This document shows, in pieces, positions 16,913 through 41,309 of a DNA stretch of 64,000 nucleotides. The notes under the pieces are model-generated. The model searched no databases. It was not told the DNA's origin and was given only the letters and a program-made list of their open reading frames with translations. Position numbers and translations under genes: made by a program. The stretch's first letter is position 1; each line of letters begins with the position of its first letter. Origin of the DNA: a virus; the IMG/VR virus record IMGVR_UViG_3300035633_000651, positions 1 through 64,000 of that record; one strand, 5' to 3'.

Positions 16913-16913
16913 C

Positions 16914-16942
16914 TTGACACGCACCGGCACACAAAACAGCAT
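16914..16942 (+). promoter_or_regulatory. Promoter with CCGG spacer
   Basis: TTGACA (16914-16919) begins two bases after a tRNA; spacer of 17 bases carrying CCGG; weak -10 CAGCAT six bases before ATG 16949. Confidence 0.6.
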
Positions 16943-16948
16943 GTGGGC

Positions 16949-17134
16949 ATGGCCCCAGAAACACGCTTCGCCATCTGCTCCAAAGACGGTCTGCACTTCG
17001 TCGTCGAGAATGTGGGGAGCGGGGAGTTCGACTTCCGTTCGGACCACATCCCAGACAACGAGCCCACGCCTGACATCAACACGGCGTGCGCTCGGTGCCG
17101 CCAGCTGATCGAGGCCGCACGTGGCACGCACTAA
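16949..17134 (+). CDS. Small CxxC protein
   Basis: 61 residues, ATG 6 bases after the -10 box so the mRNA should be leaderless. It ends with TACARCRQLIE, a CxxC that could pair with an earlier Cys. Function unknown. Confidence 0.55.
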   Translation: MAPETRFAICSKDGLHFVVENVGSGEFDFRSDHIPDNEPTPDINTACARCRQLIEAARGTH

Positions 17135-17429
17135 GATCCTCGGCACGGACGCCGAGATGAAAGAAGTGCGTCGGCGGTACGAAGCGGGCGCAACTGTTCG
17201 TGAGGTCGCAGACGGGTTAGGCGTTTCCGTCACGCCAGTGCGAAGAGCGTTGCAACAAGCTGGAGCGAAGATACGCAAGCGCGGACGGCGCTCAGGCCCG
17301 GTCGATCCGGCCCGTGTGAAGACCTTTCAAGGTCTCCGAAACCGCGGCTGGACCTTCAACGAGATCGCCGAAGAGTACGGCCTTTCGCGGCAGGCTGTGC
17401 AGCAGTATTTGGCACAGCACGTGCAGTAG
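17121..17429 (+). CDS. Small protein with two helix-turn-helix motifs
   Basis: 102 residues from GTG 17121. Two HTH units of the resolvase/homeodomain-like type: REVADGLGVSVTPVRRALQQ near residue 28 and FNEIAEEYGLSRQAVQQYLA near residue 80, joined by a basic linker (KIRKRGRRSG). Likely DNA-binding regulator or a stray recombinase HTH; no catalytic domain is present. Confidence 0.75.
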   Translation: MARTKILGTDAEMKEVRRRYEAGATVREVADGLGVSVTPVRRALQQAGAKIRKRGRRSGPVDPARVKTFQGLRNRGWTFNEIAEEYGLSRQAVQQYLAQHVQ

Positions 17430-17437
17430 CCTGCTGC

Positions 17438-17536
17438 ATGTCAAGCAGCGGCCTTGCCAAGACCATGCGCGAGCAACGCGCGGCAGTCCTTGGCCAAGAA
17501 CGACAGCACGCCGAGCCTCTCCGAGGTGAAGCGTGA
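17438..17536 (+). CDS. Tiny hypothetical protein
   Basis: 32 residues from ATG 17438, five bases after TAGCCT. The stop overlaps the next GTG (GTGA). Coupling is the main support. Confidence 0.4.
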   Translation: MSSSGLAKTMREQRAAVLGQERQHAEPLRGEA

Positions 17537-18099
17537 GGCGCCTTGTCATCGTCGAGTCCCCGTTCTCGGCCGACACGCCCGAGCTGTTCGCTCGGAACCT
17601 CCAGTACCTGAAGGCGTGCGTCCTGGACTGCCTCCAGCGAGGTGAGTCGCCCTACGCGAGCCACGGCTTCTTCCCGAACTTCCTGCACGACGCCAACGCG
17701 GAGGAGCGAGAGCTGGGCATGGACTGCGGCTTCGACGTCGGACACGCTTTCGCTGCGGCGGCGCGTGCGCGGCTGGAGGACAAGTGGCTGGCGGACGACG
17801 AGGCCTACGCGGAACAAAACCTGTCCACGCGTGCTGCTCAGGTCGTCTACACAGACCTCGGCATCAGCAGCGGCATGCAGCGAGGCGTCGAGGCGCTCGA
17901 CGGCATCTTGCCGCGCGAAGACCGTCAGCTCGGTGAAGACTGGGCGCGCTTGATCGAGGGCCGCGAGACCATCCAGCACATCAAGCTGGAGGAGCCTCAG
18001 GTCGACGGCGAGCTGCTCGAAGAGCTTCGCCGCACCGAGCGGCACGTCGGCAACGACGCCGCACTCGGTGCGGCCGTTCGCAAGCTCCTGAACACGTGA
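17533..18099 (+). CDS. DUF7768-like protein
   Basis: 188 residues. It has the conserved order of this phage/bacterial family: VIVESPF at the start, RGESPYASHGFFPN, then ELGMDCGFDVGHAF, VVYTDLGISSGMQRGVEAL and RQLGEDWARL. It is related to the nucleoside deoxyribosyltransferase/TIR-like Rossmann group, but no activity is established for the family. A second protein of similar type is at 35426. Confidence 0.75.
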   Translation: MRRLVIVESPFSADTPELFARNLQYLKACVLDCLQRGESPYASHGFFPNFLHDANAEERELGMDCGFDVGHAFAAAARARLEDKWLADDEAYAEQNLSTRAAQVVYTDLGISSGMQRGVEALDGILPREDRQLGEDWARLIEGRETIQHIKLEEPQVDGELLEELRRTERHVGNDAALGAAVRKLLNT

Positions 18100-18128
18100 A
18101 CCTGTCGGCCTAGGCTGGGCCGACCACT

Positions 18129-18200
18129 GGGACTGTAGCTCTGTGGAGAGCAGCGGGCTTTTAACCCGAACGGAGATGGGTTCGACTCCCTCCGGTCCCA
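18129..18200 (+). tRNA. tRNA-Lys (TTT)
   Basis: Acceptor GGGACTG/CGGTCCC, anticodon loop CTTTTAA, T-loop TTCGACT. Confidence 0.88.
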
Positions 18201-18202
18201 TT

Positions 18203-18286
18203 GGATGGTGCCAGCGGATAGGTCCGCGACCGGTGTCGAATACCGGGGGACGCCGAGAGGCGGGGGTTCGAATCCTACACCATCCG
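18203..18286 (+). tRNA. tRNA-Ser (CGA)
   Basis: Acceptor GGATGGT/ACCATCC, anticodon loop GTCGAAT, long variable arm with GCC-GAGA-GGC hairpin as expected for Ser. It is the only tRNA in the set with a normal long variable arm. Confidence 0.85.
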
Positions 18287-18289
18287 AGC

Positions 18290-18363
18290 TGGGGCGTAGC
18301 TCAACAGGTAGCAGCGCCGGGCTTTGAACCCGGAGGTTGAGGGTTCGAGCCCCTCCGCCCCAT
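18290..18363 (+). tRNA. tRNA-Gln (TTG)
   Basis: Acceptor TGGGGCG/CGCCCCA, anticodon loop CTTTGAA, T-loop TTCGAGC. Confidence 0.88.
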
Positions 18364-18397
18364 CAGTCCTCGTCTTCGTGCATTTCCACCGATCCAC

Positions 18398-18469
18398 AGA
18401 GGTGTAGCACAACGGTGGTGCTCCCGGCTCTGAACCGGGCGGTTGCAGGTTCGAATCCTGCCACCTCTT
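18398..18469 (+). tRNA. tRNA-Gln (CTG)
   Basis: Acceptor AGAGGTG/CACCTCT, anticodon loop CTCTGAA, T-loop TTCGAAT. Confidence 0.88.
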
Positions 18470-18513
18470 AGCTTGACTCCGTCCTGCGCGTCGGCGTTGA
18501 TGCGACTCGTCCT

Positions 18514-18585
18514 GCCGGCTTCAGCTAGCGGCTAAGCTGCGTGCCTTGTAAGCACGTCACGCCGGTTCGAGTCCGGCAGTCGGCT
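18514..18585 (+). tRNA. tRNA-Thr (TGT)
   Basis: Acceptor GCCGGCT/AGTCGGC, anticodon loop CTTGTAA, T-loop TTCGAGT. Confidence 0.88.
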
Positions 18586-18588
18586 GTC

Positions 18589-18864
18589 ATGGGAAGAGAC
18601 AAGATACCCTCGGCACCAACCATCTACTCGTCGCAAGACCTCACATCTCAGGACCTGCCCACGGCAGTGGACACCGTGAAGCTGCAGGAAGACCAAGTGC
18701 TGATCACGATCAGTCGCCCGCTCACGCCACGTGGCGTGCAGCTCAACGCCGTCGCGAAGCCCAGCAAGGTGGGCGCGACCACGGCGGCGCTCATCAAGCT
18801 GGCACGCGAGCTGAAAGCCAACTCGCTCATCCAGCATTATATTGAAGATGCACTGAACACCTGA
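18589..18864 (+). CDS. Small hypothetical protein
   Basis: 91 residues from ATG 18589, three bases after a tRNA. Helical C-terminus (AALIKLARELKANSLIQHYI). It may be translated from the processed tRNA transcript. No family recognised. Confidence 0.55.
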   Translation: MGRDKIPSAPTIYSSQDLTSQDLPTAVDTVKLQEDQVLITISRPLTPRGVQLNAVAKPSKVGATTAALIKLARELKANSLIQHYIEDALNT

Positions 18865-18872
18865 CACTCCTT

Positions 18873-18945
18873 GGCCTCATCGTCTAATGGTTAGGATGAC
18901 GGATTTTCACCCCGTCGATGCTGGGTTCAATTCCCGCTGAGGCCA
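18873..18945 (+). tRNA. tRNA-Glu (TTC)
   Basis: Acceptor GGCCTCA/TGAGGCC, anticodon loop TTTTCAC, T-loop TTCAATT. Confidence 0.88.
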
Positions 18946-18973
18946 GGGTCCTCGTCTCGACGAGGGCACCAAC

Positions 18974-19047
18974 GGCGCTGTAGTATAATGGTCTAGTACG
19001 CCGGATTCTCAATCCGGAAATCGTGAGTTCGATCCTCCGCAGCGTCA
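18974..19047 (+). tRNA. tRNA-Glu (CTC)
   Basis: Acceptor GGCGCTG/CAGCGTC, anticodon loop TTCTCAA. T-stem has two mismatches, so stability is reduced. Confidence 0.78.
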
Positions 19048-19119
19048 TCCTCTCTAGCTATTCTGGGAAAGCAATCGGCTGTTAACCGACGAAGCAGGGT
19101 TCGATTCCCTGGGGAGGAG
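19048..19119 (+). tRNA. tRNA-Asn (GTT)
   Basis: Acceptor TCCTCTC/GGGAGGA, anticodon loop CTGTTAA, T-loop TTCGATT. It starts at the base after the previous tRNA, and CCA follows the discriminator base, the only clear encoded CCA in the cluster. Confidence 0.88.
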
Positions 19120-19124
19120 CCAAC

Positions 19125-19197
19125 GACTCTGTGGCAGAATGGCAAATGCGCGCGGCTGCAACCCGCGTTTACGTCGGTTCGATTCCGACCGGAGTCT
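19125..19197 (+). tRNA. tRNA-Cys (GCA)
   Basis: Acceptor GACTCTG/CGGAGTC, anticodon loop CTGCAAC, T-loop TTCGATT. Confidence 0.88.
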
Positions 19198-19201
19198 TTC
19201 A

Positions 19202-19276
19202 CGGGATGTGGCTCAGTCTGGCTAGAGCGCTCGTCTGGGGGGCGAGAGACCGTCGGTTCGAATCCGGCCATCCCGA
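19202..19276 (+). tRNA. tRNA-Pro (GGG)
   Basis: Acceptor CGGGATG/CATCCCG (the C1-G72 pair typical of Pro), anticodon loop CTGGGGG, T-loop TTCGAAT. Confidence 0.88.
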
Positions 19277-19280
19277 TTTC

Positions 19281-19354
19281 ACCTCGGTAGACCAACTGGT
19301 AGAGTCAGCAGGTTGAGGGCCTGTCCAGTGTCGGTTCGAATCCGACCCGAGGTA
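19281..19354 (+). tRNA. tRNA-Leu (GAG), short variable loop
   Basis: Acceptor ACCTCGG/CCGAGGT, anticodon loop TTGAGGG, T-loop TTCGAAT. The variable loop is about 5 bases; bacterial Leu tRNAs normally carry a long arm. Confidence 0.78.
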
Positions 19355-19366
19355 TGCAGCATTGAC

Positions 19367-19442
19367 GTCCCTGTGGGCAATTTGGTAAAGCCGCTCGTCT
19401 CAGAAGCGAGAGATTTTGTGGGTTCGACTCCCTCCAGGGACA
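19367..19442 (+). tRNA. tRNA-Leu (CAG), short variable loop
   Basis: Acceptor GTCCCTG/CAGGGAC, anticodon loop CTCAGAA, T-loop TTCGACT; variable region about 7 bases, no long arm. Confidence 0.8.
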
Positions 19443-19542
19443 TGGAAACGAGACCTTGACGGTGATGCTGATGTGGTTCAAAACGCGAGCGGGCGATGAC
19501 GCCCCACCAACGTTGGCCTGCACGGCCGAAGGAACGTACCAC

Positions 19543-19854
19543 ATGCCTGCACCTGCACTGGTCCTCACCCGAGGCAACATCACCTACACCGCCGACCCCG
19601 TCGAGAAGGACGGCTTCCGCATCAACGCGAGCCTCTCCAGCCCCGCCGAGGGCGCGAACTGGGCCCTCTCGGTCTCGACGCAGCTCGTGGACGCAGCGGT
19701 CGTCGACGACAACGATGAGGCCGCTCGCTTCACCGCTTCGTCGCTGACGGTTCCCTTCAACGAGGCTCCGGACCTGGCTTCGGCCACGGCCAAGCTTCAG
19801 GCGCTCGTGGATCTGGTCTTCGACCAGTTCATCCCGGCTCAGGCGTCGATCTGA
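19543..19854 (+). CDS. Hypothetical protein within tRNA cluster
   Basis: 103 residues from ATG 19543, preceded by AAGGAA at a Shine-Dalgarno distance and by a TTGACG box upstream. Beta-rich, acidic. An earlier ATG at 19462 is open but lies over the promoter. Resembles a small secreted or virion-type protein in composition; no family recognised. Confidence 0.55.
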   Translation: MPAPALVLTRGNITYTADPVEKDGFRINASLSSPAEGANWALSVSTQLVDAAVVDDNDEAARFTASSLTVPFNEAPDLASATAKLQALVDLVFDQFIPAQASI

Positions 19855-19889
19855 CGCCCACGCGTCGCCCCGTCCTGGGGTGACGCCCT

Positions 19890-19956
19890 GCCCGCACCGA
19901 TGGACGGCAGACGCCCTGGTATGGCGTCGACGGCAGTTCGATTCTGCCTGTGGGCT
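19890..19956 (+). tRNA. tRNA-Thr (GGT), reduced D arm
   Basis: Acceptor GCCCGCA/TGTGGGC, anticodon loop CTGGTAT, T-arm GGCAG-TTCGATT-CTGCC. The D arm is shortened (3-bp stem), giving a 67-base tRNA. Confidence 0.7.
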
Positions 19957-20048
19957 GCGAGTAGCACCGCATCCTCTGGACACACGCGACGAAGGAGGCG
20001 CTGCGGGGTCAAACTGAGGCGCTCGCGAGCCTTGGGCGCTCACCCAAT

Positions 20049-20116
20049 GGAGCGTACAACAGGGTTGAGACCTGGTTGCTAGTCAGGTTGACTGAGTTCG
20101 AATCTCAGGCGCTCCG
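20049..20116 (+). tRNA. tRNA-Ser-like (GCT), reduced D arm
   Basis: Acceptor GGAGCGT/GCGCTCC, anticodon loop TTGCTAG, T-arm CTGAG-TTCGAAT-CTCAG. It has a minimal D arm and no long variable arm, so Ser identity is inferred from the anticodon only. Confidence 0.62.
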
Positions 20117-20121
20117 ACCTC

Positions 20122-20150
20122 TTGACATTTGCCGGGCGAGCCGCGCACGC
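20122..20150 (+). promoter_or_regulatory. Promoter with CCGG spacer
   Basis: TTGACA at 20122-20127 followed by TTTGCCGGG; weak -10 (CACGCT) six bases before ATG 20158. Confidence 0.55.
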
Positions 20151-20157
20151 TGTCTGT

Positions 20158-20760
20158 ATGACCGAGTACGGCACCGACGCTTGGTGGGACGAGTACCGCG
20201 AGTTCGCCTGGGAGTCTCTTCAGCGTCACCGTGACGCGTTCGAGCGGCTCATGTACATGGCGCCCTGGCATCTGTGCACCTACAACACGACCTTCGACCT
20301 AGGCGCAGGGCGTGCGGGTATCGGCTTCAATGTGGTACGGGCGAGTCATACAGTCCACTACGTCTCCTACGACGCCGACCCGAATGCCAAAGCTGACCAC
20401 TGCGTAGACTATCGGACGCTGTCTCGGCTCGAACCGCTTGACTCGCAGCCGTCCCCGATCACGATGGTGACGTCGTTCTTCTCGACCGAACTCACGGCAG
20501 GGCCGCACGCGAACCAGTCCTTCTACAGGCACCTGTTCAAGTGCAACCCCGAGCTGCAGACGATCGTCGTGGCAGGCATGTACTACGCCGACAAGGCCGA
20601 CCATCCCTCCGTGACGGAGACCGGCGGCATCGTCTCGTGGCAGTCCATCGGTCCGGTGCGCACCAACGAGACGCGTCTGCTCATCCCGGCGCCGTCGAAG
20701 ATGTTCGGCGAGACCGTCGTCGAGGTCTGGCGCCGCCTGGACCGCCCGGAGGACTTGTGA
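20158..20760 (+). CDS. Hypothetical protein
   Basis: 200 residues, leaderless start at ATG 20158. Alpha/beta pattern; the stretch TYNTTFDLGAGRAGIGFNVV carries a Gly-rich loop. No confident family. Coupled to the next tiny membrane protein (GTGA overlap). Confidence 0.6.
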   Translation: MTEYGTDAWWDEYREFAWESLQRHRDAFERLMYMAPWHLCTYNTTFDLGAGRAGIGFNVVRASHTVHYVSYDADPNAKADHCVDYRTLSRLEPLDSQPSPITMVTSFFSTELTAGPHANQSFYRHLFKCNPELQTIVVAGMYYADKADHPSVTETGGIVSWQSIGPVRTNETRLLIPAPSKMFGETVVEVWRRLDRPEDL

Positions 20761-20858
20761 ATCCTTGGCTGATCACGTTCGGGGTTGTCTTCGGAGTGCT
20801 GAGCACGTGCGCGGTCGTCGCATATCTGGCGGTCTGGCTTGATGAGGACGGCGATTGA
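20757..20858 (+). CDS. Tiny single-pass membrane protein
   Basis: 33 residues from GTG 20757. One transmembrane helix (LITFGVVFGVLSTCAVVAYL) and an acidic C-terminus. Confidence 0.55.
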   Translation: MNPWLITFGVVFGVLSTCAVVAYLAVWLDEDGD

Positions 20859-20944
20859 CCTGGTTCGGCGAGTACTGGACGGACTGCGACAGTCCGCTGA
20901 ACAACGTCCGACACGGCGGACTCTGCAAGGTATGTGATCCGTGA
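20855..20944 (+). CDS. Possible tiny Cys-containing protein
   Basis: 29 residues from TTG 20855 overlapping the upstream stop; contains WTDCDSPLNN and GLCKVCDP, a possible half zinc site. Low support. Confidence 0.3.
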   Translation: MTWFGEYWTDCDSPLNNVRHGGLCKVCDP

Positions 20945-20951
20945 TCAATCA

Positions 20952-21024
20952 CGAGGTGAAGGCCCGGGGTGGGCCGCCTGGTTTGGGACCAGGACATCGG
21001 CAGGTTCGACTCCTGTCACCTCGA
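20952..21024 (+). tRNA. tRNA-Pro (TGG)
   Basis: Acceptor CGAGGTG/CACCTCG, anticodon loop TTTGGGA, T-loop TTCGACT. Confidence 0.88.
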
Positions 21025-21028
21025 TTCC

Positions 21029-21102
21029 CTGGGTGTGGTTCAATTTGGTAGAGCGCCTGGTTCGGGGCCAGGAGACTGTCGGTTCGAATCCGGCCACCCA
21101 GA
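21029..21102 (+). tRNA. tRNA-Pro (CGG)
   Basis: Acceptor CTGGGTG/CACCCAG, anticodon loop TTCGGGG, T-loop TTCGAAT. Confidence 0.88.
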
Positions 21103-21187
21103 TTTCAGACACTTGCGCGGAGCGCGCAGGGAGGTGCGGGTAGCTCGCCTGGTGCACCGTAGGTGGGGACCAAGCCGTCTGAATTCT

Positions 21188-21263
21188 GCGCGCGTAGCCC
21201 AATTTGGTAGGAGGCAGCGGCTTCAAATCCCGTCCAGTGCCAGTTCGAATCTGGCCGTGCGCA
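21188..21263 (+). tRNA. tRNA-Leu (CAA), short variable loop
   Basis: Acceptor GCGCGCG/CGTGCGC, T-arm GCCAG-TTCGAAT-CTGGC. Anticodon loop best read TTCAAAT with a C-C mismatch closing it; reading one base earlier would give TCA. Variable loop 5 bases, same as the Leu (GAG) tRNA. Confidence 0.65.
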
Positions 21264-21291
21264 TCCTGACAGACCCTGCTAGACTCCGGAG

Positions 21292-21651
21292 GTGCCGAAC
21301 CAGCCTCCCAAGAACCGTCCGTTCTGGCAGACGGTCGTGCTTACGCTGGCCACCGGCCTGGGCGGTGCGACGGCGGCCTACTTCGGCGCCACTCAGAACC
21401 AACCCTCAGCGCAGACTGTGGCCGCTGTGGACGCCAAGCAGGACAAGACCTGGGAGGTGACCCACCTGCTCCTCCAGAACATCCTGAGCGACCAGGAGCG
21501 CCTCCAACGGCAGGTGACACGCCTGAACGAACTCTGTACTGAGGGCGCGCAGGAGACGCCCTTCGACGAGGTGGAGGTCCCTCACCGTGACGTGCCGGAC
21601 CACATCGAGGTCGAGCCCGAGGCGGTCCAACGCAAGCTGGAGTCCTACTGA
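21292..21651 (+). CDS. Membrane-anchored coiled-coil protein
   Basis: 119 residues from GTG 21292, six bases after TAGACT. A helix at residues ~12-32 (TVVLTLATGLGGATAAYFGA) should span the membrane. A coiled-coil region (LLLQNILSDQERLQRQVTRL) and an acidic tail follow. Reminiscent of small holin/spanin-like or inner-membrane phage proteins; no assignment. Confidence 0.6.
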   Translation: MPNQPPKNRPFWQTVVLTLATGLGGATAAYFGATQNQPSAQTVAAVDAKQDKTWEVTHLLLQNILSDQERLQRQVTRLNELCTEGAQETPFDEVEVPHRDVPDHIEVEPEAVQRKLESY

Positions 21652-21884
21652 TGGCCTTCTCGGTCGGCGACGAGGTGCTCCTCGACGTCACGGTGACCGC
21701 CGGGACCGAGATCCTCACGGACGGCGACACCCGCACCTGGGCCTTGCGGAACCACCGCACGCGTCCAGTGCGCATTCTCAGTTTCTCAGGGGATACGGTT
21801 GAGGTAGAGTTCCTCGACGCTTTGGGGCCAGCGTTCGGCCCGGACGGTTTCTACCCGACGCGGTTTTTGAGACCTCCCGTCTAA
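21651..21884 (+). CDS. Small beta-rich hypothetical protein
   Basis: 77 residues from ATG 21651 overlapping the previous stop. SH3-like strand pattern (FSVGDEVLLDVTVTAGTEIL). The next tRNA starts at the first base after its stop codon. Confidence 0.6.
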   Translation: MAFSVGDEVLLDVTVTAGTEILTDGDTRTWALRNHRTRPVRILSFSGDTVEVEFLDALGPAFGPDGFYPTRFLRPPV

Positions 21885-21955
21885 GCGGGTGCGGTGTGAT
21901 GGTCGCATCTCAGCTTGCCATGCTGAAGGTGAGGGTTCGATTCCCTTCACCCGCT
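21885..21955 (+). tRNA. tRNA-Gly (GCC)
   Basis: Acceptor GCGGGTG/CACCCGC, anticodon loop TTGCCAT, T-loop TTCGATT; abuts a stop codon on its 5' side. Confidence 0.88.
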
Positions 21956-21978
21956 CACTGCCTGCTCTCATTCGGTCA

Positions 21979-22043
21979 GCCTCGGCTGGTCGCATGACCA
22001 GGACCCCGACGACCGGTCGGGTGTGGAGTTTGACTCCGAGGCG
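21979..22043 (+). ncRNA. tRNA-like cloverleaf without normal T arm
   Basis: GCCTCGG/CCGAGGC closes a 7-bp stem. Hairpins CTGGTC-GCAT-GACCAG and CCCGA-CGACCGG-TCGGG follow in D and anticodon positions. The anticodon loop lacks U33 and no T arm fits. Probably a decayed tRNA. Confidence 0.35.
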
Positions 22044-22117
22044 CCACGCGTACGGGGCGCTAGGCGAGACGAAGTGTTGGGGACGCCCGCACGGAGAATC
22101 TCACCACCGGTCCACAT

Positions 22118-22189
22118 GCTGGTCTAGCCGTCTGGGACGGCAGTGGTCTCATAAGCCACTAGAGCTGAGTTCGATTCTCAGGTCCAGCA
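22118..22189 (+). tRNA. tRNA-Met (CAT)
   Basis: Acceptor GCTGGTC/GTCCAGC with one T-T mismatch, D arm GCCG/CGGC, anticodon loop CTCATAA, T-loop TTCGATT. Elongator Met or Ile2 cannot be told apart by anticodon. Confidence 0.82.
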
Positions 22190-22191
22190 AC

Positions 22192-22264
22192 GCAGGAGTG
22201 GCTCAGCGGCTAGAGCAGCGCTTTCACACGGCGACGACCGAGGGTTCGAGTCCCTCCTTCTGCA
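22192..22264 (+). tRNA. tRNA-Val (CAC)
   Basis: Acceptor GCAGGAG/CTTCTGC, anticodon loop TTCACAC, T-loop TTCGAGT. Confidence 0.85.
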
Positions 22265-22266
22265 AC

Positions 22267-22339
22267 CCACCGCGACGGCCTGGTCGGCCTGCGGCGCCTG
22301 ATAAGCGCGGTGTTCGAGGTTCGATTCCTCGGCGGTGGA
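22267..22339 (+). tRNA. tRNA-Ile (GAT)
   Basis: Acceptor CCACCGC/GCGGTGG, anticodon loop CTGATAA, T-arm CGAGG-TTCGATT-CCTCG. Confidence 0.85.
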
Positions 22340-22343
22340 CCAC

Positions 22344-22372
22344 TTGACACATGCCGGAGCTAGCTCCACTGT
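22344..22372 (+). promoter_or_regulatory. Promoter for deaminase gene
   Basis: TTGACA at 22344-22349 with CATGCCGG at the start of the spacer; weak -10 (CACTGT) seven bases before ATG 22380. Confidence 0.55.
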
Positions 22373-22379
22373 CGGCGGG

Positions 22380-22943
22380 ATGAACCCGACGCACCTGCAG
22401 ATTCGCATCGAGCAGTGCTTGGCATTGGCCAAGGCGAGTCACTGCCCTCGCCGGAAGTTCGCAGCGCTCCTGCTTGACCCGGAGCGTAACGTCGTCCTGA
22501 TGGACGGCTACAACGGCCCGCCCCGCGGCAAACAGAAGCTCTGCGCGCGACTCTCGAACGGGGTCGAGTTCTGCGAGCGCGACGGCCTCGACCCACTGGC
22601 GTTCGAAGTCGAAGACACGACCGCGTATCGGTACGAGCTGCTGGAGCGGTACCCAGGTGTGCCGTCAGGGACGCACTACGAGCTGGGCTGCCACCACGCA
22701 GAGCAGAACGTCATCTGCAACGCGGCGGCGAACGGCGTCCGGACCCGAGGCGCCTGGATGATTATCAACGGCGAGCCGTGCATCATCTGTGCGAAGCTCA
22801 TTCACCACGCCGGCATCACCAAAGTCATCTGTGTGGGCGGCGGCTTCCGCGGACCCAACGGACTCGACTACCTCGAAGGTCACGACGTCGAGGTCGAGCT
22901 GGTGGACGGTCCGAAAGACCCCAGGTCAAGCCAGCTCGGCTAG
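22380..22943 (+). CDS. dCMP deaminase
   Basis: 187 residues. It converts dCMP to dUMP, feeding thymidylate synthesis. Zinc ligands are intact: H106 with catalytic E108 in HHAEQNVI, then C134 and C137 in GEPCIICAKL. RRKFAALLLD and the closing AGITKVICVGGG match the ComE/dCMP deaminase family, with the usual insertion between the substrate loop and HAE. The start follows a phage-type promoter with 7 bases between -10 and ATG. Confidence 0.9.
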   Translation: MNPTHLQIRIEQCLALAKASHCPRRKFAALLLDPERNVVLMDGYNGPPRGKQKLCARLSNGVEFCERDGLDPLAFEVEDTTAYRYELLERYPGVPSGTHYELGCHHAEQNVICNAAANGVRTRGAWMIINGEPCIICAKLIHHAGITKVICVGGGFRGPNGLDYLEGHDVEVELVDGPKDPRSSQLG

Positions 22944-23672
22944 CGGCTTGACGTACTTGCCGTTCTTCGGGGGTGGAGGTAGCGCAGCCTCGGCCGTTGC
23001 AGCGAACCTCAGGCAGACCCACTCACCGACCCGTCCGGTCCCGCGCTGCCACCACAAATCGACCACAGAGCCGTCGCGAGCGACGAAGCGCGTGTCGGAA
23101 GGAACGAGCCCCTCAGGCTGTACGCCGTTCACGACTTGCGAGAAGCGGCGCGTGGCGCTGGGCACGTCCTCGACGAAGACGAAGTCGGTGAACAGGCGCC
23201 CCTCGATGCGCTCTGGCGTCGTGCGAAGCCAGTCCGCGAAGCACTGGTTGGCTTCTACTACGCGGCCTTGCCAGTCCACGTAGAGCATCCCGGTCGGAGC
23301 GCCCTGGAAGGTGTGGTGGTCACGCGCTGCGATGGCGCGCTCCGCATCAGCCCTGCGCAGCTCGCGCAAGACTTGGAAGGCCTCGACGATGCCGTCGTGC
23401 AGATGAAACAGGAAGTAGAAGGCGGTCCCTGCAGCCCAAGCCGCGGTCACCGTCTTGGCGGTCACGTGCACGAGCATCAAGTCGGGCCAGACCTGACGTC
23501 CCGCTGCGACGAGCTGGGTGACGCCGAAGAGCAGGACCAAGACCGAGAAGGCGGACCATGCGTGTTGAACGCTTCGACTGCCTTCGGGCAGGTAGCTTCG
23601 GATCGAGAGCAGTGCCGGCCCCATCAGGAGGCAAGACACAGCGAGCAGTAGGTGGCTGTAGAACAAGATCAT
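22926..23672 (-). CDS. Membrane protein with PAS domain
   Basis: 248 residues on the - strand. Three hydrophobic helices fill residues ~1-95 (FYSHLLLAVSCLLMGPALLS and following). A PAS fold from ~115 to 225 follows (TFQGAPTGMLYVDWQGRVVE, NQCFADWLRTT, SDTRFVARDGSVVDLWW). No kinase, cyclase or HTH output is attached, so it may sense a ligand and act on a partner at the membrane. Its start overlaps the stop of the gene at 23669 (ATGA), forming a two-gene - strand unit; its 3' end overlaps the deaminase tail to tail. Confidence 0.78.
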   Translation of the reverse strand: MILFYSHLLLAVSCLLMGPALLSIRSYLPEGSRSVQHAWSAFSVLVLLFGVTQLVAAGRQVWPDLMLVHVTAKTVTAAWAAGTAFYFLFHLHDGIVEAFQVLRELRRADAERAIAARDHHTFQGAPTGMLYVDWQGRVVEANQCFADWLRTTPERIEGRLFTDFVFVEDVPSATRRFSQVVNGVQPEGLVPSDTRFVARDGSVVDLWWQRGTGRVGEWVCLRFAATAEAALPPPPKNGKYVKPLAELA

Positions 23673-23989
23673 CTTTCGCGGCGGTTGACGCGGTCGGCCA
23701 GTCGACGACGCGCAACCCTCTCCTCTTTCAGTCCCTCTTCGAGCCCGCGGATGTCGCGCTCGACCACATCGAGACGGCGGTCGGCGTGCACTTCCTTCAG
23801 CTCTTGGAACTGACCTTTCAGTTCTCCAACCTCTAGCGTCAAAACCTGAATCTCGCCGCGCAGCGTGAACACGATCGCAGCGGCGCCCACGACCATGCTA
23901 GCGAACCAGCCCAGCCCCTGGGCGTACTCCAGGTACGTCTTGAAGACGGCCCCCGCTGAGGGAGGTGTAGGGGCGCCGGTAGAGGTCAC
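23669..23989 (-). CDS. Membrane-anchored coiled-coil protein
   Basis: About 106 residues from GTG 23989; TACGCT lies 7 bases upstream, matching the leaderless pattern (an ATG-type start at 24046 is longer but upstream of that box). One transmembrane helix (LGWFASMVVGAAAIVFTL) then a long coiled coil to the end. Co-transcribed with the PAS protein, possibly its partner. Confidence 0.62.
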   Translation of the reverse strand: MTSTGAPTPPSAGAVFKTYLEYAQGLGWFASMVVGAAAIVFTLRGEIQVLTLEVGELKGQFQELKEVHADRRLDVVERDIRGLEEGLKEERVARRRLADRVNRRER

Positions 23990-24039
23990 GTCCCGTAGCG
24001 TATCACCGCGGCACGGGGTGTGCATAGGTCGATTCGGGG

Positions 24040-24068
24040 TTGACACGACCCTGCTTTCTGGGCATCCT
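24040..24068 (+). promoter_or_regulatory. Promoter upstream of tRNA-His
   Basis: TTGACA at 24040-24045, 17-base spacer, CATCCT at the -10 position. TSS would fall just upstream of the tRNA. Confidence 0.5.
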
Positions 24069-24079
24069 GCCCAAACTTT

Positions 24080-24151
24080 GGTGCCTGGTGCTCCGTGGTG
24101 GAGCAGCCGGTTGTGGGCCGGCCAGGGCGAGTTCGATTCTCGTCAGGTACC
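24080..24151 (+). tRNA. tRNA-His (GTG)
   Basis: Acceptor GTGCCTG/CAGGTAC extended by an encoded G-1 opposite C73, the His-specific feature. Anticodon loop TTGTGGG, T-arm GCGAG-TTCGATT-CTCGT. Confidence 0.9.
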
Positions 24152-24226
24152 CTCGCTGGACCGAAGCACGACGGTTATCGCTCATGCCGACTCCCCCGTC
24201 ACTGCATCACCTTGTTCGGCAATTTT

Positions 24227-24299
24227 GGGACTGAAGTCTACTGGGTGGACGCTCCACTGTCTCTGGAGAATGAGGCGAGTTCGATTCTCGTCGGTCCCG
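24227..24299 (+). tRNA. tRNA-Asp (GTC)
   Basis: Acceptor GGGACTG/CGGTCCC, anticodon loop CTGTCTC, discriminator G, T-loop TTCGATT. Confidence 0.88.
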
Positions 24300-24302
24300 T
24301 GT

Positions 24303-24377
24303 CGCGGAGTAGACTGGACGGGATCCAGCACCGGTCTCATAAGCCGGCCTATGCAGGTTCGAATCCTGCCTCCGCTA
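24303..24377 (+). tRNA. tRNA-Met (CAT), possible initiator
   Basis: Acceptor CGCGGAG/CTCCGCT with an unpaired C1-T72, reminiscent of the unpaired first position of bacterial initiator tRNA. Anticodon loop CTCATAA. The anticodon stem lacks the three G-C pairs typical of initiators, so identity is open. Confidence 0.78.
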
Positions 24378-24379
24378 AC

Positions 24380-24453
24380 GGCTGAGTAGCTCAGATGGTA
24401 GAAGCGGCGGTCTGAAGAATCGCGCGTCGGGGGTTCGAGTCCCTCCTCAGCCA
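24380..24453 (+). tRNA. tRNA-Phe (GAA)
   Basis: Acceptor GGCTGAG/CTCAGCC, anticodon loop CTGAAGA, T-loop TTCGAGT. Confidence 0.87.
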
Positions 24454-24466
24454 ACCTCCTCACGTC

Positions 24467-24691
24467 ATGGACGACCTACAAGTCACGGCGCAGGCCAAAC
24501 ACAGCACCTCCTCAACGAAACGAGAAGAAGCGCCCGAGGTCGACGAGGGTGCCGCCAATGGGGTGCTTGACATGATGGCTGCAGCCGGCGCACGGGTAGA
24601 TGAAGAGCTTCGGACCGACGAGCGACTCGCCTGGGACAAGCTCGGCATCAAGCCGAAGAGGAGACGAAAGAATGCCCGCACATCTCGGTGA
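24467..24691 (+). CDS. Small charged hypothetical protein
   Basis: 74 residues, ATG 24467 thirteen bases after tRNA-Phe. Acidic middle, basic end (KPKRRRKNARTSR). Overlaps the next gene by 20 bases. Confidence 0.5.
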   Translation: MDDLQVTAQAKHSTSSTKREEAPEVDEGAANGVLDMMAAAGARVDEELRTDERLAWDKLGIKPKRRRKNARTSR

Positions 24692-24890
24692 TGGAACCTG
24701 CCTCGAAGAGACCCGCGATGCCATCCACGTTCACGTGTGGCCGAACGGGCGCACGCAGGCTGGCGACTACAAGACCTGGATCCCGAAGTCGGTCATCGCT
24801 GACGACTCGGACGTGGCAGCGAAGAACGACGTCGGCGACATCTTCGTCCGAACGTGGTTTGCTGAAAAAGAGGGCTTGCCACACACCTGA
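24672..24890 (+). CDS. Small hypothetical protein
   Basis: 72 residues from ATG 24672, compact beta-rich composition (DAIHVHVWPNGRTQAGDYKT). No family recognised. Confidence 0.5.
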   Translation: MPAHLGDGTCLEETRDAIHVHVWPNGRTQAGDYKTWIPKSVIADDSDVAAKNDVGDIFVRTWFAEKEGLPHT

Positions 24891-24917
24891 GCCTGTGCCA
24901 GGCTCACGACGCACGAC

Positions 24918-24990
24918 GCGCGACTGGCTGTACTGGAGTGCACGCTGTCTTGACACGGCAGAGGTCGAGGTTCGATTCCTCGGTTGCGCA
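24918..24990 (+). tRNA. tRNA-Val (GAC)
   Basis: Acceptor GCGCGAC/GTTGCGC, anticodon stem CTGTC/GGCAG around TTGACAC, T-arm CGAGG-TTCGATT-CCTCG. Confidence 0.82.
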
Positions 24991-24997
24991 TGGGGAA

Positions 24998-25063
24998 CCG
25001 AAGAGTACTTGGTTATCGCTTTTTTGGAACAAAAGGCCGGGCGGTTCGATTCCGTCATTCGTC
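24998..25063 (+). tRNA. tRNA-Ser-like (GGA), degenerate
   Basis: The anticodon arm is perfect (CTTTT-TTGGAAC-AAAAG, 25019-25035) and the T arm is present (GGCGG-TTCGATT-CCGTC). The acceptor pairs at only about four positions and the D arm is short. Probably decayed or unusually folded. Confidence 0.42.
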
Positions 25064-25131
25064 GCACCCGAAAGGGTAAAGATGGTTCTGGTCGCGACAA
25101 TCTCCGAGTCTCATAACTTGTTCTTCACTTT

Positions 25132-25203
25132 GGGCTGATGGTGAAACTGGGATCACACCTGCCTTGCAAGCAGGAATCCGGGGTTCGAATCCCCGTCGGT
25201 CCA
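25132..25203 (+). tRNA. tRNA-Ala (TGC)
   Basis: Acceptor GGGCTGA/TCGGTCC (with G3-T70, the Ala identity pair), anticodon loop CTTGCAA, T-loop TTCGAAT. Confidence 0.88.
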
Positions 25204-25237
25204 ACGCGAACCGAAGAAGATGGGTTACCGATGAACA

Positions 25238-25307
25238 TCCGGGTGTCGCGAGGTGGAACTCCTCGCCAGCAGCTCAGGCTGCTGTAGCTCAGCACGAGAG
25301 CACCGGA
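25238..25307 (+). ncRNA. Candidate circularly permuted tRNA
   Basis: Elements occur in the order 3' half then 5' half: TCCGG (25238), 5-base variable loop, T-like arm GCGAGG-TGGAACT-CCTCGC, acceptor 3' strand CAGCAGC, a 4-base linker TCAG, acceptor 5' strand GCTGCTG, TA, D arm GCTC-AGCACGA-GAGC, A, then CCGGA (25303-25307), which pairs with TCCGG as the anticodon stem. All four stems form only in the permuted order. The T-loop is non-canonical. It could also be fused remnants of two tRNAs. Confidence 0.4.
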
Positions 25308-25361
25308 CCTGTGTTCCACTTCGTTCACTTGTTCGCTACTAATTCCCTGAACCGAAGACTT

Positions 25362-25433
25362 GCTCGGTTGGTGCAGTGGCTAGCATTCGCCTTTCGTAAG
25401 GGTGCGACGAGGGTTCGAGTCCCTCACCGAGCT
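25362..25433 (+). tRNA. tRNA-Thr (CGT)
   Basis: Acceptor GCTCGGT/ACCGAGC, anticodon loop TTCGTAA, T-loop TTCGAGT. Confidence 0.87.
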
Positions 25434-25477
25434 TCGAGGCTGCGCGCATCTTGTCTCGACCCGCGCGCAGCCTCGAA
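25433..25477 (+). terminator. 15-bp hairpin between tRNAs
   Basis: TTCGAGGCTGCGCGC and GCGCGCAGCCTCGAA pair perfectly over a 15-base loop. It begins at the discriminator base of tRNA-Thr and could end transcription or guide RNA processing. No T-run. Confidence 0.5.
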
Positions 25478-25480
25478 TCT

Positions 25481-25553
25481 GCCCCTGTAGCATAATTGGA
25501 AGTGCACAGAGCTACGAACTCTGGTTGTGTCCGTTCGAGTCGGGCCGGGGGTG
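25481..25553 (+). tRNA. tRNA-Arg (ACG)
   Basis: Acceptor GCCCCTG/CGGGGGT, anticodon loop CTACGAA, T-loop TTCGAGT. Confidence 0.86.
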
Positions 25554-25606
25554 CAGGCTCGAACGCCCGAGCGTGGTAGGCGTGACAGTCGGAGAGACGA
25601 CACTTT

Positions 25607-25679
25607 GCCCGTGTAGCTCAGTGGAAGAGAGCGCAGGCCTCCGAAGCCTGGAGCGCTGGTTCGAGTCCAGCCACGGGTG
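25607..25679 (+). tRNA. tRNA-Arg (CCG)
   Basis: Acceptor GCCCGTG/CACGGGT, anticodon loop CTCCGAA, T-loop TTCGAGT. Confidence 0.87.
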
Positions 25680-25683
25680 CTCT

Positions 25684-25755
25684 GCCCCTGGGGCGCACCG
25701 GAGCGCAGCCGGACTTCTAATCCGGTCCTAGCAGGTTCGAATCCTGTCGGGGGTG
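25684..25755 (+). tRNA. tRNA-Arg (TCT)
   Basis: Acceptor GCCCCTG/CGGGGGT, anticodon loop CTTCTAA, T-loop TTCGAAT. Confidence 0.87.
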
Positions 25756-25756
25756 C

Positions 25757-38306: not shown

Positions 38307-38355
38307 GTGGCGGGCTGTTGGGGCCGTCAGGGAGGTTCGACTCCTCCCCGCCGCA
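38307..38355 (+). ncRNA. Armless tRNA-like element
   Basis: Acceptor GTGGCGG/CCGCCGC and T arm GGAGG-TTCGACT-CCTCC are perfect, but only 16 bases (with a GGC-TGTTGGG-GCC hairpin) separate them. It lacks a D arm and a usable anticodon: a deleted tRNA or a tRNA mimic of 49 bases. Confidence 0.45.
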
Positions 38356-38406
38356 TTCGGGATCCGGTCAGCCCGGTCAGAGAGCTGCAGACTCTCCCCG
38401 AAACCA

Positions 38407-38481
38407 AGCGTCGGTAGCTCAGTGGTAGAGCGCCGTGGACTAAGGCCCCCGGAGGTCGCAGGTTCAAACCCTGCCCGACGC
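38407..38481 (+). tRNA. tRNA with expanded anticodon loop
   Basis: Acceptor GCGTCGG/CCGACGC, D arm GCTC-AGTGGTA-GAGC, variable AGGTC and T arm GCAGG-TTCAAAC-CCTGC are canonical. The anticodon arm CCGTGG...CCCCGG leaves a loop of 8 bases (or 10 with a 5-bp stem) containing CTAAGG, so the anticodon (possibly Leu) is uncertain. Confidence 0.65.
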
Positions 38482-38491
38482 AAACCAACCC

Positions 38492-38529: not shown

Positions 38530-38709
38530 GTGGCTCCCAAGCTCTGGCCTCACCAGCAGGCCGCCGTTGACGCGGTCAAGAAGACCCTTCGCCGTGCCGA
38601 CAGGTGCTGCGTGTTCTCTGCAACCGGCACCGGCAAGACCCGCACTGAACTCGAAGTCATGTCGCCGCGCAATCGGCGCAAGGTCATCGTCTTGGATGCC
38701 CAGCAATAA
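38530..38709 (+). pseudogene. Truncated superfamily 2 helicase fragment
   Basis: 59 residues from GTG 38530. LWPHQQAAVDAVKKTL matches the Q/N-terminal region and CCVFSATGTGKTRTELEV the Walker A motif of SF2 helicases. KVIVLDAQQ then stops at TAA, where roughly 400 or more further residues would be expected. The CRISPR locus begins immediately downstream, so the helicase was probably cut by insertion or deletion there. It could also be a retained mini-protein. Confidence 0.65.
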
Positions 38710-38735: not shown

Positions 38736-38764
38736 TTGACAACCACCCAACGTTGTCAGGATGA
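38736..38764 (+). promoter_or_regulatory. Promoter of CRISPR tracrRNA/effector
   Basis: TTGACA (38736-38741) followed by ACCACCCAACGTTGTCA, which keeps the phage dyad in the form GACA-N4-CCCA-N4-TGTC. The -10 (GGATGA) is weak. Predicted start of RNA near 38771. Confidence 0.5.
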
Positions 38765-38770
38765 TACTCG

Positions 38771-38915
38771 AAGTCGGGTGGGAACCCGGCGCGTGGAGCT
38801 GCTGCGTAGGCAGGGAGCGGAAGCGCAAGGTCTACGGACCGAAGCAGATGGATATGATTGAATGCGTTTCGAGTGCGGCTGACCCGGCGTCTGAGGACGG
38901 ACGCCGGGTCAGCTA
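38771..38915 (+). ncRNA. Candidate tracrRNA with CRISPR anti-repeat
   Basis: Bases 38845-38873 are complementary to 26 of 29 consecutive positions (1-29) of the CRISPR repeat located 2 kb downstream. They are in the orientation needed for a + strand tracrRNA to pair with a + strand crRNA. The segment is flanked by a small hairpin CGGGT-GGGA-ACCCG (38775-38788) and by a perfect 14-bp hairpin (38878-38891 with 38900-38913, arm GCTGACCCGGCGTC). The only good start codons of the effector, ATG 38848 and 38854, lie inside the anti-repeat, so guide RNA and mRNA overlap. Confidence 0.72.
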
Positions 38916-40770
38916 CCTACCTTGCACTGCCTGCGGCACGAAGCAGCACCCCAAGCGACTGCGTAACGACGTGTGCCAGCAGTGCCGGACCCGTACAGGA
39001 GGACAGGTCGTCCGGGCCTACCGATACCGACTGTATCCGACACCCGCACAAGCCGCGCAGCTCGCTCGGGCGGGCGAGATGTCACGCCAGCTCTGGAATT
39101 ACCTCGTGCGAGATGCGGTCGACGTCGCGCGCACGGAGTCGCGCGTGGCGCGCAAGCACTACGCCCGATGGCACGCACGTCACCCCGACGTGGAAAAGAT
39201 GCCGAAAAAGGTCAAGTCTTCGATCTCTGAGCGGGCGAAGAAGGTATGCATCCGTGTGCATGGGCACGACTGGCGGGAGCCTCTGCGGAACCTGCCGCCT
39301 ATGGGCGAGATCACCTCGGCGCTGAGGGCACAGCGTCCCTGGTGGGGGCTGCCTGGCAACATGTCCAACGCGGTGCTTCAAACTGCCCAAGACGCGGTCA
39401 AGAAGAGCCGCCCACCGCGCATGAAGCGTCGAGGTCGGTTCGGGGAGCTGACTCTGCCTGGTCCTACGAACGGTGCGAAGGACTTGGTGCTCGACGAGCG
39501 CGACCCGCGGACTGCCTGGCTCACGGTGCCGAACGCACACCTCAAACTCAAAAAAGGTAAGCGTGTAGAGGACCAGGCGGTCACTGGGAACGTGCGGGCG
39601 AAGCGGCATCGTCCGCGCGTAGAGGACCAGGCGGTCGCCGGGAACGTGCGAGTGCTGCTGCATCGTCCGCTACCGCCTGATATCATTCACGACGAGGGCA
39701 AGCCGGCGGTGCGTCGTGTGGCGTTGGTGCACGAGGCGGGGGCTTGGTACGTCAGCGTGACGTACGAGTATGTCGCGCCTGGACGCGATGTCGCGCCCGA
39801 CCGCGCGTTGATTTGCGGCGTCGACCGCAACATGGCCACTAATCTGTGCACCTTCAGCTGTCCCGTCGGGCCTGTCGTGTACCAGGACGGTACACAGCCG
39901 GAGTCGCTCAGCGCCCCCTGGACGGACCCCTATATGGTGCCGTACCTTGTCTACACCGCAGAAGAGCGGAAGGCGGCGGCGCGCCGTGACGCGCACGCTC
40001 GCCGCATCGCGCGTCTTGTTGCGCGCACGCACCTGGACAAGGCGGCACGCGCGAGCGCGATCAACACCCACAAGTGGGGCCGCCGGTCGCGCGGCGAAGA
40101 CGACCCCGGGCAGCCGAAGTCGAAGCGTTGGGCCGCATCCGACAAAGCTGCAACCAAAGCTGCCGACCGTGGCGCGCGCAACCGCAAAGAAGTTCGGCGC
40201 CTGGTGGCCGACCGGTTGACGTACCACTGCCGCATCGTAGTCTTCGAGGCGCTCGACGCGCGGCAAATGATGGCGCGGACTCCAGGTGCGGGCGCAGGCG
40301 GGCGTGGACGGAACCGGAAGCAGGCGACCCAAGGCTGGGGTGACCTGCGCCTGCAGACGGAGTCTTCTGCCCAATTGCGTGACACGTTGGTCATCGAGGT
40401 GCCGTCTGCTTACACGTCGCAGACGTGCGCTGAGTGCGGGCACCCCGACTCGGCGTCGCGGCAGGACCAAGCCACATACGTGTGCACCGCCTGCGGACAC
40501 ACCGACAACGCGGACCGCAACGCCGCTCGGAACATCGAGCACCGCGGAGCGGCACTGCTCTCTGCGCCTATCGAGCTGGTGCGCGCCGCGCAAAGCCCGA
40601 AGAAAACCAAGACGGGGGCGGCCAAGGACCTGCAGACGCTGCTGTACGCTTGCGAGCGGCTCAGTGCCGCCGAAAAGGCCGACCTCGCTCGCGCCCCAAA
40701 GTGGGCGCAATCCTGGGCACTTAGCTACTTGAAGCGCGTCGCAGCTGACCACAAGGCCCGCAGCAACTAG
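38848..40770 (+). CDS. Compact Cas12f/TnpB-like CRISPR effector nuclease
   Basis: About 640 residues from ATG 38848 (ATG 38854 also possible). Order: N-terminal zinc ribbon C26/C29...C43/C46; TnpB/Cas12-type start VVRAYRYRLYPTPAQAAQLA; long helical region; RuvC-I GVDRN (D326); RuvC-II VVFEAL (E467); zinc ribbon C527/C530/C546/C549 (TSQTCAECGH, YVCTACGH); RuvC-III NADRNAARNI (D556); and an 80-residue tail. All three RuvC acids are present, so it should cut DNA. Larger than TnpB (about 400) and in the size range of Cas12f, whose N-terminal zinc finger and need for tracrRNA it shares. A 54-base in-frame tandem duplication lies at 39562-39669. Followed at once by a CRISPR array. Confidence 0.85.
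   Translation: MDMIECVSSAADPASEDGRRVSYLPCTACGTKQHPKRLRNDVCQQCRTRTGGQVVRAYRYRLYPTPAQAAQLARAGEMSRQLWNYLVRDAVDVARTESRVARKHYARWHARHPDVEKMPKKVKSSISERAKKVCIRVHGHDWREPLRNLPPMGEITSALRAQRPWWGLPGNMSNAVLQTAQDAVKKSRPPRMKRRGRFGELTLPGPTNGAKDLVLDERDPRTAWLTVPNAHLKLKKGKRVEDQAVTGNVRAKRHRPRVEDQAVAGNVRVLLHRPLPPDIIHDEGKPAVRRVALVHEAGAWYVSVTYEYVAPGRDVAPDRALICGVDRNMATNLCTFSCPVGPVVYQDGTQPESLSAPWTDPYMVPYLVYTAEERKAAARRDAHARRIARLVARTHLDKAARASAINTHKWGRRSRGEDDPGQPKSKRWAASDKAATKAADRGARNRKEVRRLVADRLTYHCRIVVFEALDARQMMARTPGAGAGGRGRNRKQATQGWGDLRLQTESSAQLRDTLVIEVPSAYTSQTCAECGHPDSASRQDQATYVCTACGHTDNADRNAARNIEHRGAALLSAPIELVRAAQSPKKTKTGAAKDLQTLLYACERLSAAEKADLARAPKWAQSWALSYLKRVAADHKARSN
39562..39669 (+). repeat. 54-base tandem duplication inside the effector gene
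   Basis: Two adjacent copies (39562-39615, 39616-39669) encode 18-residue units VEDQAVTGNVR... and VEDQAVAGNVR.... The copies differ mainly near their 3' ends. The duplication is in frame and sits between the helical region and RuvC-I. Confidence 0.8.
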
Positions 40771-40827
40771 GCCCGCGCGCAATCGAAGAAAAAAGACCCA
40801 TGACATCCAACACTTACACCCCCGCCT
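40771..40827 (+). promoter_or_regulatory. CRISPR leader region
   Basis: 57 bases between the effector stop and repeat 1, with an A-rich stretch (GAAGAAAAAAGA), A/T-richer than its surroundings. Leader side is inferred because the most diverged repeat is at the opposite end. Confidence 0.5.
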
Positions 40828-41309
40828 CCCGAAACGCACTCACTCATATCCATCTGTTGCCACATCGGAAGGATAGTACGGACAGCCTGCCCTCCGGGGC
40901 CGCCCGAAACGCACTCACTCATATCCATCTGTTGCCACAAACCGTCGCCAAAGAACTTCTTCATCCGGGGCGCGAAGACCCGAAACGCACTAACTCATGT
41001 CCATCTGTTGCCACCACCCTGCGAGCACCAGAGCCGCCCGGCGCGGGTCCGTCCCGAAACGCACTCGCTCATATCCATCTGTTGCCACAAGACAGCGCGG
41101 GCGACACGCTTTCACATACGACCCACCCCGAAACGCACTCACTCATATCCATCTGTTGCCACCCAATAGTGGAGCGCGCTCCACGTGAGGTCCTCGACCC
41201 CGAAACGCACTCACTCATGTCCATCTGTTGCCACCCCGTCCAGGCTAACGGAGCTGAGATGCTCCGAATCGCCCCCGAAACGCCCTCAGTCGGGTCTATC
41301 TGGAGCCAC
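40828..41309 (+). CRISPR. CRISPR array, 7 repeats of 36 bases, 6 spacers
   Basis: Repeats at 40828, 40903, 40979, 41053, 41127, 41199 and 41274 begin CCCGAAACGC and end TGTTGCCAC. Repeats 1, 2 and 5 are identical; 3, 4 and 6 differ at one or two bases; the last (41274-41309) matches at 28 of 36, as expected for a trailer-end repeat. Spacers are 39, 40, 38, 38, 36 and 39 bases and all different. The array starts 58 bases after the effector stop codon on the same strand. No cas1 or cas2 is near. Confidence 0.93.

What the first reader, a model, noticed from the sequence alone, without database searches (positions are those of the whole stretch)
38736..41309. Compact phage-encoded Type V CRISPR-Cas locus: tracrRNA, Cas12f/TnpB-like effector and array
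Seen directly: seven 36-base repeats with six unique 36-40-base spacers begin 58 bases after a ~640-residue protein with intact RuvC acids (D326, E467, D556) and two zinc ribbons. A sequence complementary to the repeat lies upstream on the same strand. Known: Cas12f-type effectors are this size, have an N-terminal zinc finger and use a tracrRNA; phage CRISPR systems commonly target rival phages or host genes. Inference: a complete interference unit lacking adaptation genes, possibly a new subtype because the tracrRNA lies in front of the effector and its anti-repeat contains the start codon.
Basis: partly seen in the sequence, partly recalled or inferred. Interest (0 to 1): 0.93.

Follow-up and report, generated by a model that had tools for sequence, protein, structure and literature searches.

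The report
Phage mini-CRISPR with start-codon tracrRNA
A large uncultivated phage carries a compact DNA-targeting CRISPR system of its own (one nuclease, one helper RNA and six target memories, but no genes for adding new memories); the helper RNA is written across the start codon of the nuclease gene, so making guides may also switch the nuclease off.

Summary
On a 109,677-bp IMG/VR phage contig, seven 36-nt repeats (40828-41309, last one degenerate) with six unique 36-40-nt spacers follow, 57 nt after its stop, a TnpB/Cas12-type gene with an intact RuvC triad (D326/E467/D556) and two zinc ribbons. A 25/27 anti-repeat (38845-38871) is the genome's only one; shuffles reach 17-19. It sits behind a TTGACA-18-GATGAT promoter candidate and a structured leader. 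No usable start codon exists between the anti-repeat and the N-terminal zinc ribbon, so translation starts in the anti-repeat (ATG 38848/38854) or upstream, at ATG 38761. Best reading: a tracrRNA-dependent type V interference module without adaptation genes, evolved separately from a TnpB. It is not shown to be Cas12f: ordinary transposon TnpBs score higher on Cas12f and Cas12n profiles than it does. No full-length relative was found. A related phage, Rctr197k, carries two different type V loci. Targets, PAM, RNA processing and activity are unknown. Phage-borne type V systems and TnpB-to-CRISPR captures are known, as is a tracrRNA inside an effector mRNA (Cas12n). The start-codon position, implying possible self-limiting control, is the unusual part. 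Verdict: a real new variant of a known kind.

The parts
38736..38765 (+). Promoter candidate TTGACA-18-GATGAT
   Evidence: Consensus scan, 1 found against 0.3 expected in 3.4 kb on both strands; not proof of function
38772..38844 (+). Predicted 5' body of the tracrRNA (stem-loops)
   Evidence: Fold z=-3.1, 2 of 300 shuffles as good; stem-loops persist in the cofold with the repeat. The 5' end is inferred from the promoter candidate.
38845..38871 (+). Anti-repeat of the tracrRNA; contains ATG 38848 and ATG 38854
   Evidence: 25/27 complementary to the repeat, unique in the contig, shuffles 17-19
38878..38913 (+). Hairpin with perfect 14-bp arms directly after the anti-repeat, inside the coding sequence; possible 3' boundary of the tracrRNA, no U-run
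   Evidence: One of two such hairpins in the genome
38848..40770 (+). TnpB/Cas12-type effector, 640 aa from ATG 38848 (669 aa from ATG 38761)
   Evidence: PF07282, PF12323, NF040570 above cut-off; catalytic triad D326/E467/D556 conserved
40771..40827 (+). 57-nt leader between effector and array
   Evidence: Sequence; 40600-40827 not unusually structured, z=-0.3
40828..41309 (+). CRISPR array: seven 36-nt repeats, six spacers; last repeat degenerate

Best explanation
A phage-encoded, self-contained interference module: a tracrRNA-dependent type V CRISPR-Cas locus whose effector descends from a TnpB separately from the named Cas12 families compared here. Proposed working: (1) a promoter at 38736 makes a transcript starting near 38772 that is both tracrRNA and effector mRNA (inferred from anatomy); (2) the array is read in the same direction, by read-through or from its leader (inferred from orientation and the degenerate far repeat); (3) each repeat pairs with the anti-repeat over 25 of 27 positions (shown as complementarity and predicted cofold) and host RNase III or the effector trims the duplex (inferred); (4) the effector with tracrRNA-crRNA cuts matching double-stranded DNA with its intact RuvC site (inferred from conserved residues), most likely that of rival phages or plasmids; (5) because the anti-repeat holds the start codon, pairing or trimming blocks or removes the effector's translation start and limits its own dose (inferred, untested). 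With no cas1/cas2 in the contig, spacers are fixed or acquired with host help.
For: Array and unique anti-repeat; structured tracrRNA body and cofold; promoter candidate; conserved RuvC triad and TNB ribbon; TnpB/Cas12 fold; no Cas1/Cas2 and no transposase in the contig; the related phage Rctr197k also carries array-linked TnpB/Cas12-type genes.
Against: No spacer target, PAM or expression data. No relative shares the layout, so nothing shows that the anti-repeat or hairpin is conserved. The short second repeat/anti-repeat stem of V-B/F/G guides was not better than chance. Orientation is inferred, since the reverse strand also folds well. No RNase III in the contig, so a host enzyme would be needed.
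Confidence: 0.78

Rival explanations
1. An ordinary transposon TnpB with an omega-RNA at its 3' end, next to an unrelated repeat satellite.
For: Passes the general guided_TnpB model; nearest matches are transposon-type TnpBs.
Against: Unique spacers, a 25/27 anti-repeat on the same strand, no Y1 or serine transposase in the contig, no structured 3' end.
Confidence: 0.05
2. The leader pairing is mainly regulatory: crRNAs act as antisense RNAs on the effector's start codon, and the leader is not a tracrRNA. The effector would use crRNA alone or another RNA.
For: The anti-repeat spans the start codon; the pseudoknot stem seen in several Cas12 guides was not found.
Against: Stem-loops directly before the anti-repeat persist in the cofold, as in known type V guides; tracrRNA use and regulation can coexist.
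Confidence: 0.1
3. A decaying remnant, no longer active.
For: A truncated helicase lies just upstream, an in-frame tandem duplication sits inside the effector (39561-39668), and no targets were found.
Against: Intact 640-codon frame with the catalytic triad, near-identical repeats apart from the terminal one, intact anti-repeat, phage-like codon use.
Confidence: 0.07

Closest known systems
Type V-U systems and other TnpB-derived variants (including TranC; LaTranC PDB 9jfo/9jfq)
   Same: TnpB-like effector linked to a CRISPR array, no adaptation genes
   Different: Effector is an orphan with its own N-terminal zinc ribbon and inserts; LaTranC matches it only weakly by sequence (0.088 E-value)
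Type V-F (Cas12f)
   Same: Small RuvC effector, TNB domain, tracrRNA use; Foldseek ranks Cas12f1 first
   Different: Scores below transposon TnpBs on Cas12f models; tracrRNA lies in front of the effector, and the effector-array gap is unstructured
Type V-N (Cas12n, formerly V-U4)
   Same: Close to TnpB, tracrRNA reported inside the effector mRNA (PMC11641405)
   Different: Cas12u4 score 76.6 against 168-265 for ordinary TnpBs; here the overlap is at the start codon
IS200/IS605 TnpB with omega-RNA
   Same: Same nuclease family; TnpB also makes its guide from its own mRNA (PMC10278001)
   Different: Omega-RNA is one molecule from the 3' end of the gene; here a 5' scaffold and a separate array, with no transposase found
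Type V-M (Cas12m) as in the related phage Rctr197k
   Same: Phage-borne effector beside an array, no adaptation genes seen beside it
   Different: The Rctr197k effector matches Cas12u1/Cas12m at 350 bits; the effector here does not match that model, keeps its RuvC triad and has an anti-repeat

Membership tests
Type V CRISPR-Cas (general) | RuvC-type single effector with catalytic residues | tested here: met
   D326/E467/D556 in invariant or nearly invariant columns
Type V CRISPR-Cas (general) | Adjacent CRISPR array with unique spacers | tested here: met
   Seven repeats, six spacers
Type V CRISPR-Cas (general) | Processed guides and RNA-guided interference | not testable with these tools
   No transcript or activity data; no target found
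Type V-F (Cas12f) | Match to Cas12f profiles above cut-off or above the TnpB background | tested here: not met
   38.7 bits against cut-off 450; 78 bits against 171 or more for TnpBs
Type V-F (Cas12f) | Guide with a short second repeat/anti-repeat stem | tested here: inconclusive
   One 6/7 candidate at 38778, but 920 of 2000 shuffled bodies pair as well
Type V-N (Cas12n) | Match to the Cas12u4 profile above the TnpB background | tested here: not met
   76.6 bits against 168-265 for ordinary TnpBs
Type V-M (Cas12m) | Match to the Cas12u1 profile | tested here: not met
   No Cas12u1 match at E up to 1; Rctr197k's effector as a positive gives 350 bits
Transposon TnpB (IS200/IS605, IS607) | Match to the guided_TnpB model | tested here: met
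   122.8 bits, cut-off 100
Transposon TnpB (IS200/IS605, IS607) | Linked Y1 or serine transposase; structured omega-RNA at the 3' end | tested here: not met
   No PF01797 or PF00239 in the contig; 40600-40827 z=-0.3. TnpBs without a transposase also exist.

The most novel reading that the evidence does not exclude
A new type V subtype with a built-in brake: the tracrRNA is cut out of the 5' end of the effector's own mRNA, so every guide made destroys or masks one start codon and the phage doses its nuclease by its crRNA supply.
Probability: 0.3. Interest if true: 0.8.

Novelty: new variant of a known kind. Interest (0 to 1): 0.58.

Why it matters
It is another, well-preserved case of a TnpB-type nuclease turned into a CRISPR effector, in a phage, with an unusual gene layout: the guide scaffold overlaps the effector's translation start. 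If the layout works as it looks, it is a simple self-limiting circuit and a testable model of how an RNA-guided nuclease moved from one omega-RNA at the 3' end of its gene to split tracrRNA and crRNA. The related phage Rctr197k carries two different type V loci, which suggests this phage group gathers such systems repeatedly.

Tried and rejected
Close relatives: IMG/VR scans with the whole protein, its N-terminal part and the repeat pattern gave nothing. The C-terminal part gave TnpB-type proteins in viruses and genomes, none full-length like this one; one short repeat cluster near a Latescibacterota TnpB (L036) was not examined. About 600 Actinomycetota and Pseudomonadota genomes searched with the N-terminal half gave only short weak matches. 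Spacer targets: array against phage and plasmid records, three of six 20-nt spacer seeds in IMG/VR, own contig and Rctr197k; nothing beyond what chance would give (part of the output was cut). Sister phages by the 819-aa gene nearby: one weak hit. Rfam: no tracrRNA match. The reverse-strand reading was considered: it also folds well, so fold energy does not decide orientation. PADLOC Cas12f and Cas12u4 hits were dropped as evidence of subtype after the TnpB control. Foldseek's Cas12f ranking was not used for membership because whole-chain TM-scores are about 0.2-0.4.

Full report
WHAT IS THERE. The window is bases 1-64000 of a 109,677-bp IMG/VR phage contig. Seven 36-nt repeats run from 40828 to 41309 with six unique spacers of 36-40 nt. 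Three repeats are identical, three differ by 1-2 bases and the last differs by 8, as is usual at the far end of an array. The array starts 57 nt after the stop of a gene on the same strand.

THE EFFECTOR. It matches Pfam's Cas12f1-like_TNB (65 bits) and HTH_OrfB_IS605 (41 bits) domains and passes NCBIfam's general guided_TnpB model (122.8 bits, cut-off 100). Numbered from ATG 38848 it has 640 residues. D326, E467 and D556 and the TNB cysteines (C527, C530, C546, C549) sit in invariant or nearly invariant columns of alignments with TnpBs. It differs from the roughly 400-aa TnpBs by an N-terminal zinc ribbon (C26/C29/C43/C46), extra sequence in the N-terminal half including an in-frame 54-nt tandem duplication (39561-39668), an insert in the RuvC half and a C-terminal tail. 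Its codon use is ordinary for this phage.

WHICH FAMILY. PADLOC's best matches are Cas12f (78 bits) and Cas12u4, the V-U4/Cas12n model (76.6). As a control I scanned five ordinary TnpBs: they score 171-267 on their best Cas12f model and 168-265 on Cas12u4, so these hits do not show membership. The NCBIfam Cas12f2 score is 38.7 against a cut-off of 450. In a tree with TnpBs and two Rctr197k effectors it is a long orphan branch with 31% identity at best. No Cas12 reference set was available for a fuller tree. Two AlphaFold2 models have low or modest confidence (pLDDT 56 and 63). Foldseek puts them in the TnpB/Cas12 superfamily with Cas12f1 entries first, but whole-chain TM-scores are about 0.2-0.4, so I do not use that ranking for membership.

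THE TRACRRNA. The site 38845-38871 is complementary to the repeat at 25 of 27 positions; shuffled genomes reach 17-19, and it is the only such site in the contig. It is preceded by a structured stretch, 38772-38844 (z=-3.1, 2 of 300 shuffles as good), and by a TTGACA-18-GATGAT promoter candidate. In the predicted cofold the stem-loops persist and the repeat forms a long stem with the anti-repeat. A hairpin with perfect 14-bp arms follows at 38878-38913, one of only two in the genome. It has no U-run, so it is not a textbook terminator. The stretch between effector and array is not structured (z=-0.3). A second short repeat/anti-repeat stem, which V-B, V-F and V-G guides have (PMC11246509), was not better than chance. 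The reverse strand folds well too, so orientation is inferred from gene direction, the promoter candidate and the degenerate last repeat.

THE START CODON. Read directly from the sequence, the only in-frame ATG/GTG/TTG codons before the first zinc-ribbon cysteine are ATG 38761, 38848 and 38854. The last two are inside the anti-repeat; the first lies inside the -10 of the promoter candidate. The anti-repeat and the coding sequence therefore overlap in every reading. Pairing with crRNA, or trimming of the duplex, would block or remove the start of translation if 38848 or 38854 is used. This is an inference and has not been tested.

SURROUNDINGS. No Cas1, Cas2 or RNase III was found in the contig, with controls that ring in known genomes, and no Y1 or serine transposase. 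The contig may be incomplete. A 59-aa remnant matching ResIII (helicase) ends 26 nt before the promoter candidate, possibly a scar of insertion. Virus Rctr197k (KX853510) shares about 30 genes, many in conserved order. It carries a Cas12m-like effector (350 bits on Cas12u1) next to an annotated array, and a 467-aa Cas12f/u3-like effector (117 bits on Cas12u3) next to a second annotated array. These differ in effector family and repeat sequence from the locus here.

TARGETS. None found: phage and plasmid records, own contig, Rctr197k, and three of six 20-nt spacer seeds in IMG/VR. Rival-phage targeting is therefore an inference from other phage systems (PMC11656645).

KNOWN AND NEW. Phage-borne type V loci are reported in numbers (PMC12607003; PMC11656645), about 50 captures of TnpB by CRISPR arrays or adaptation modules are inferred (PMC12669027), TnpB makes its guide from its own mRNA (PMC10278001), and the Cas12n tracrRNA is said to lie inside its mRNA (PMC11641405). 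What I did not find described, in an open-access library only, is a tracrRNA whose anti-repeat holds the effector's start codon. I rate it a new variant of a known kind.

Noticed in passing
L075-L078 (KX853510.1), 110803-114219 and 119281-121176 of the record: Virus Rctr197k carries two array-linked TnpB/Cas12-type genes: a Cas12m-like one with about 20 repeats and a Cas12f/u3-like one with four repeats. The record names them only 'similar to transposase' and 'transposase-like protein'.
   Followed up: partly
L002:3075-4709 (G000 67075-68709) and window 38331-38482: A Ro60-type protein (TROVE and Ro60 vWA domains) in the same phage; a sub-threshold Y RNA-like (YrlA) hit at 38331-38431 (E=0.13) overlaps a tRNA-like gene called with a four-base anticodon. 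Possibly a phage Ro-Y RNA pair.
   Followed up: no
window 38530-38709: A 59-aa remnant matching ResIII (E=6e-7) ending 26 nt before the promoter candidate; no second copy in the contig. Possibly the scar of the locus's insertion.
   Followed up: partly
window 16002-25756: 32 tRNA genes in about 10 kb, an unusually large set.
   Followed up: no
window 39561-39668: In-frame 54-nt tandem duplication inside the effector, 85% identical copies.
   Followed up: no
L036:6235-6421: A 12-mer repeated three times at 87-nt spacing at a contig end about 1 kb downstream of a Latescibacterota TnpB; might be the start of an array.
   Followed up: no
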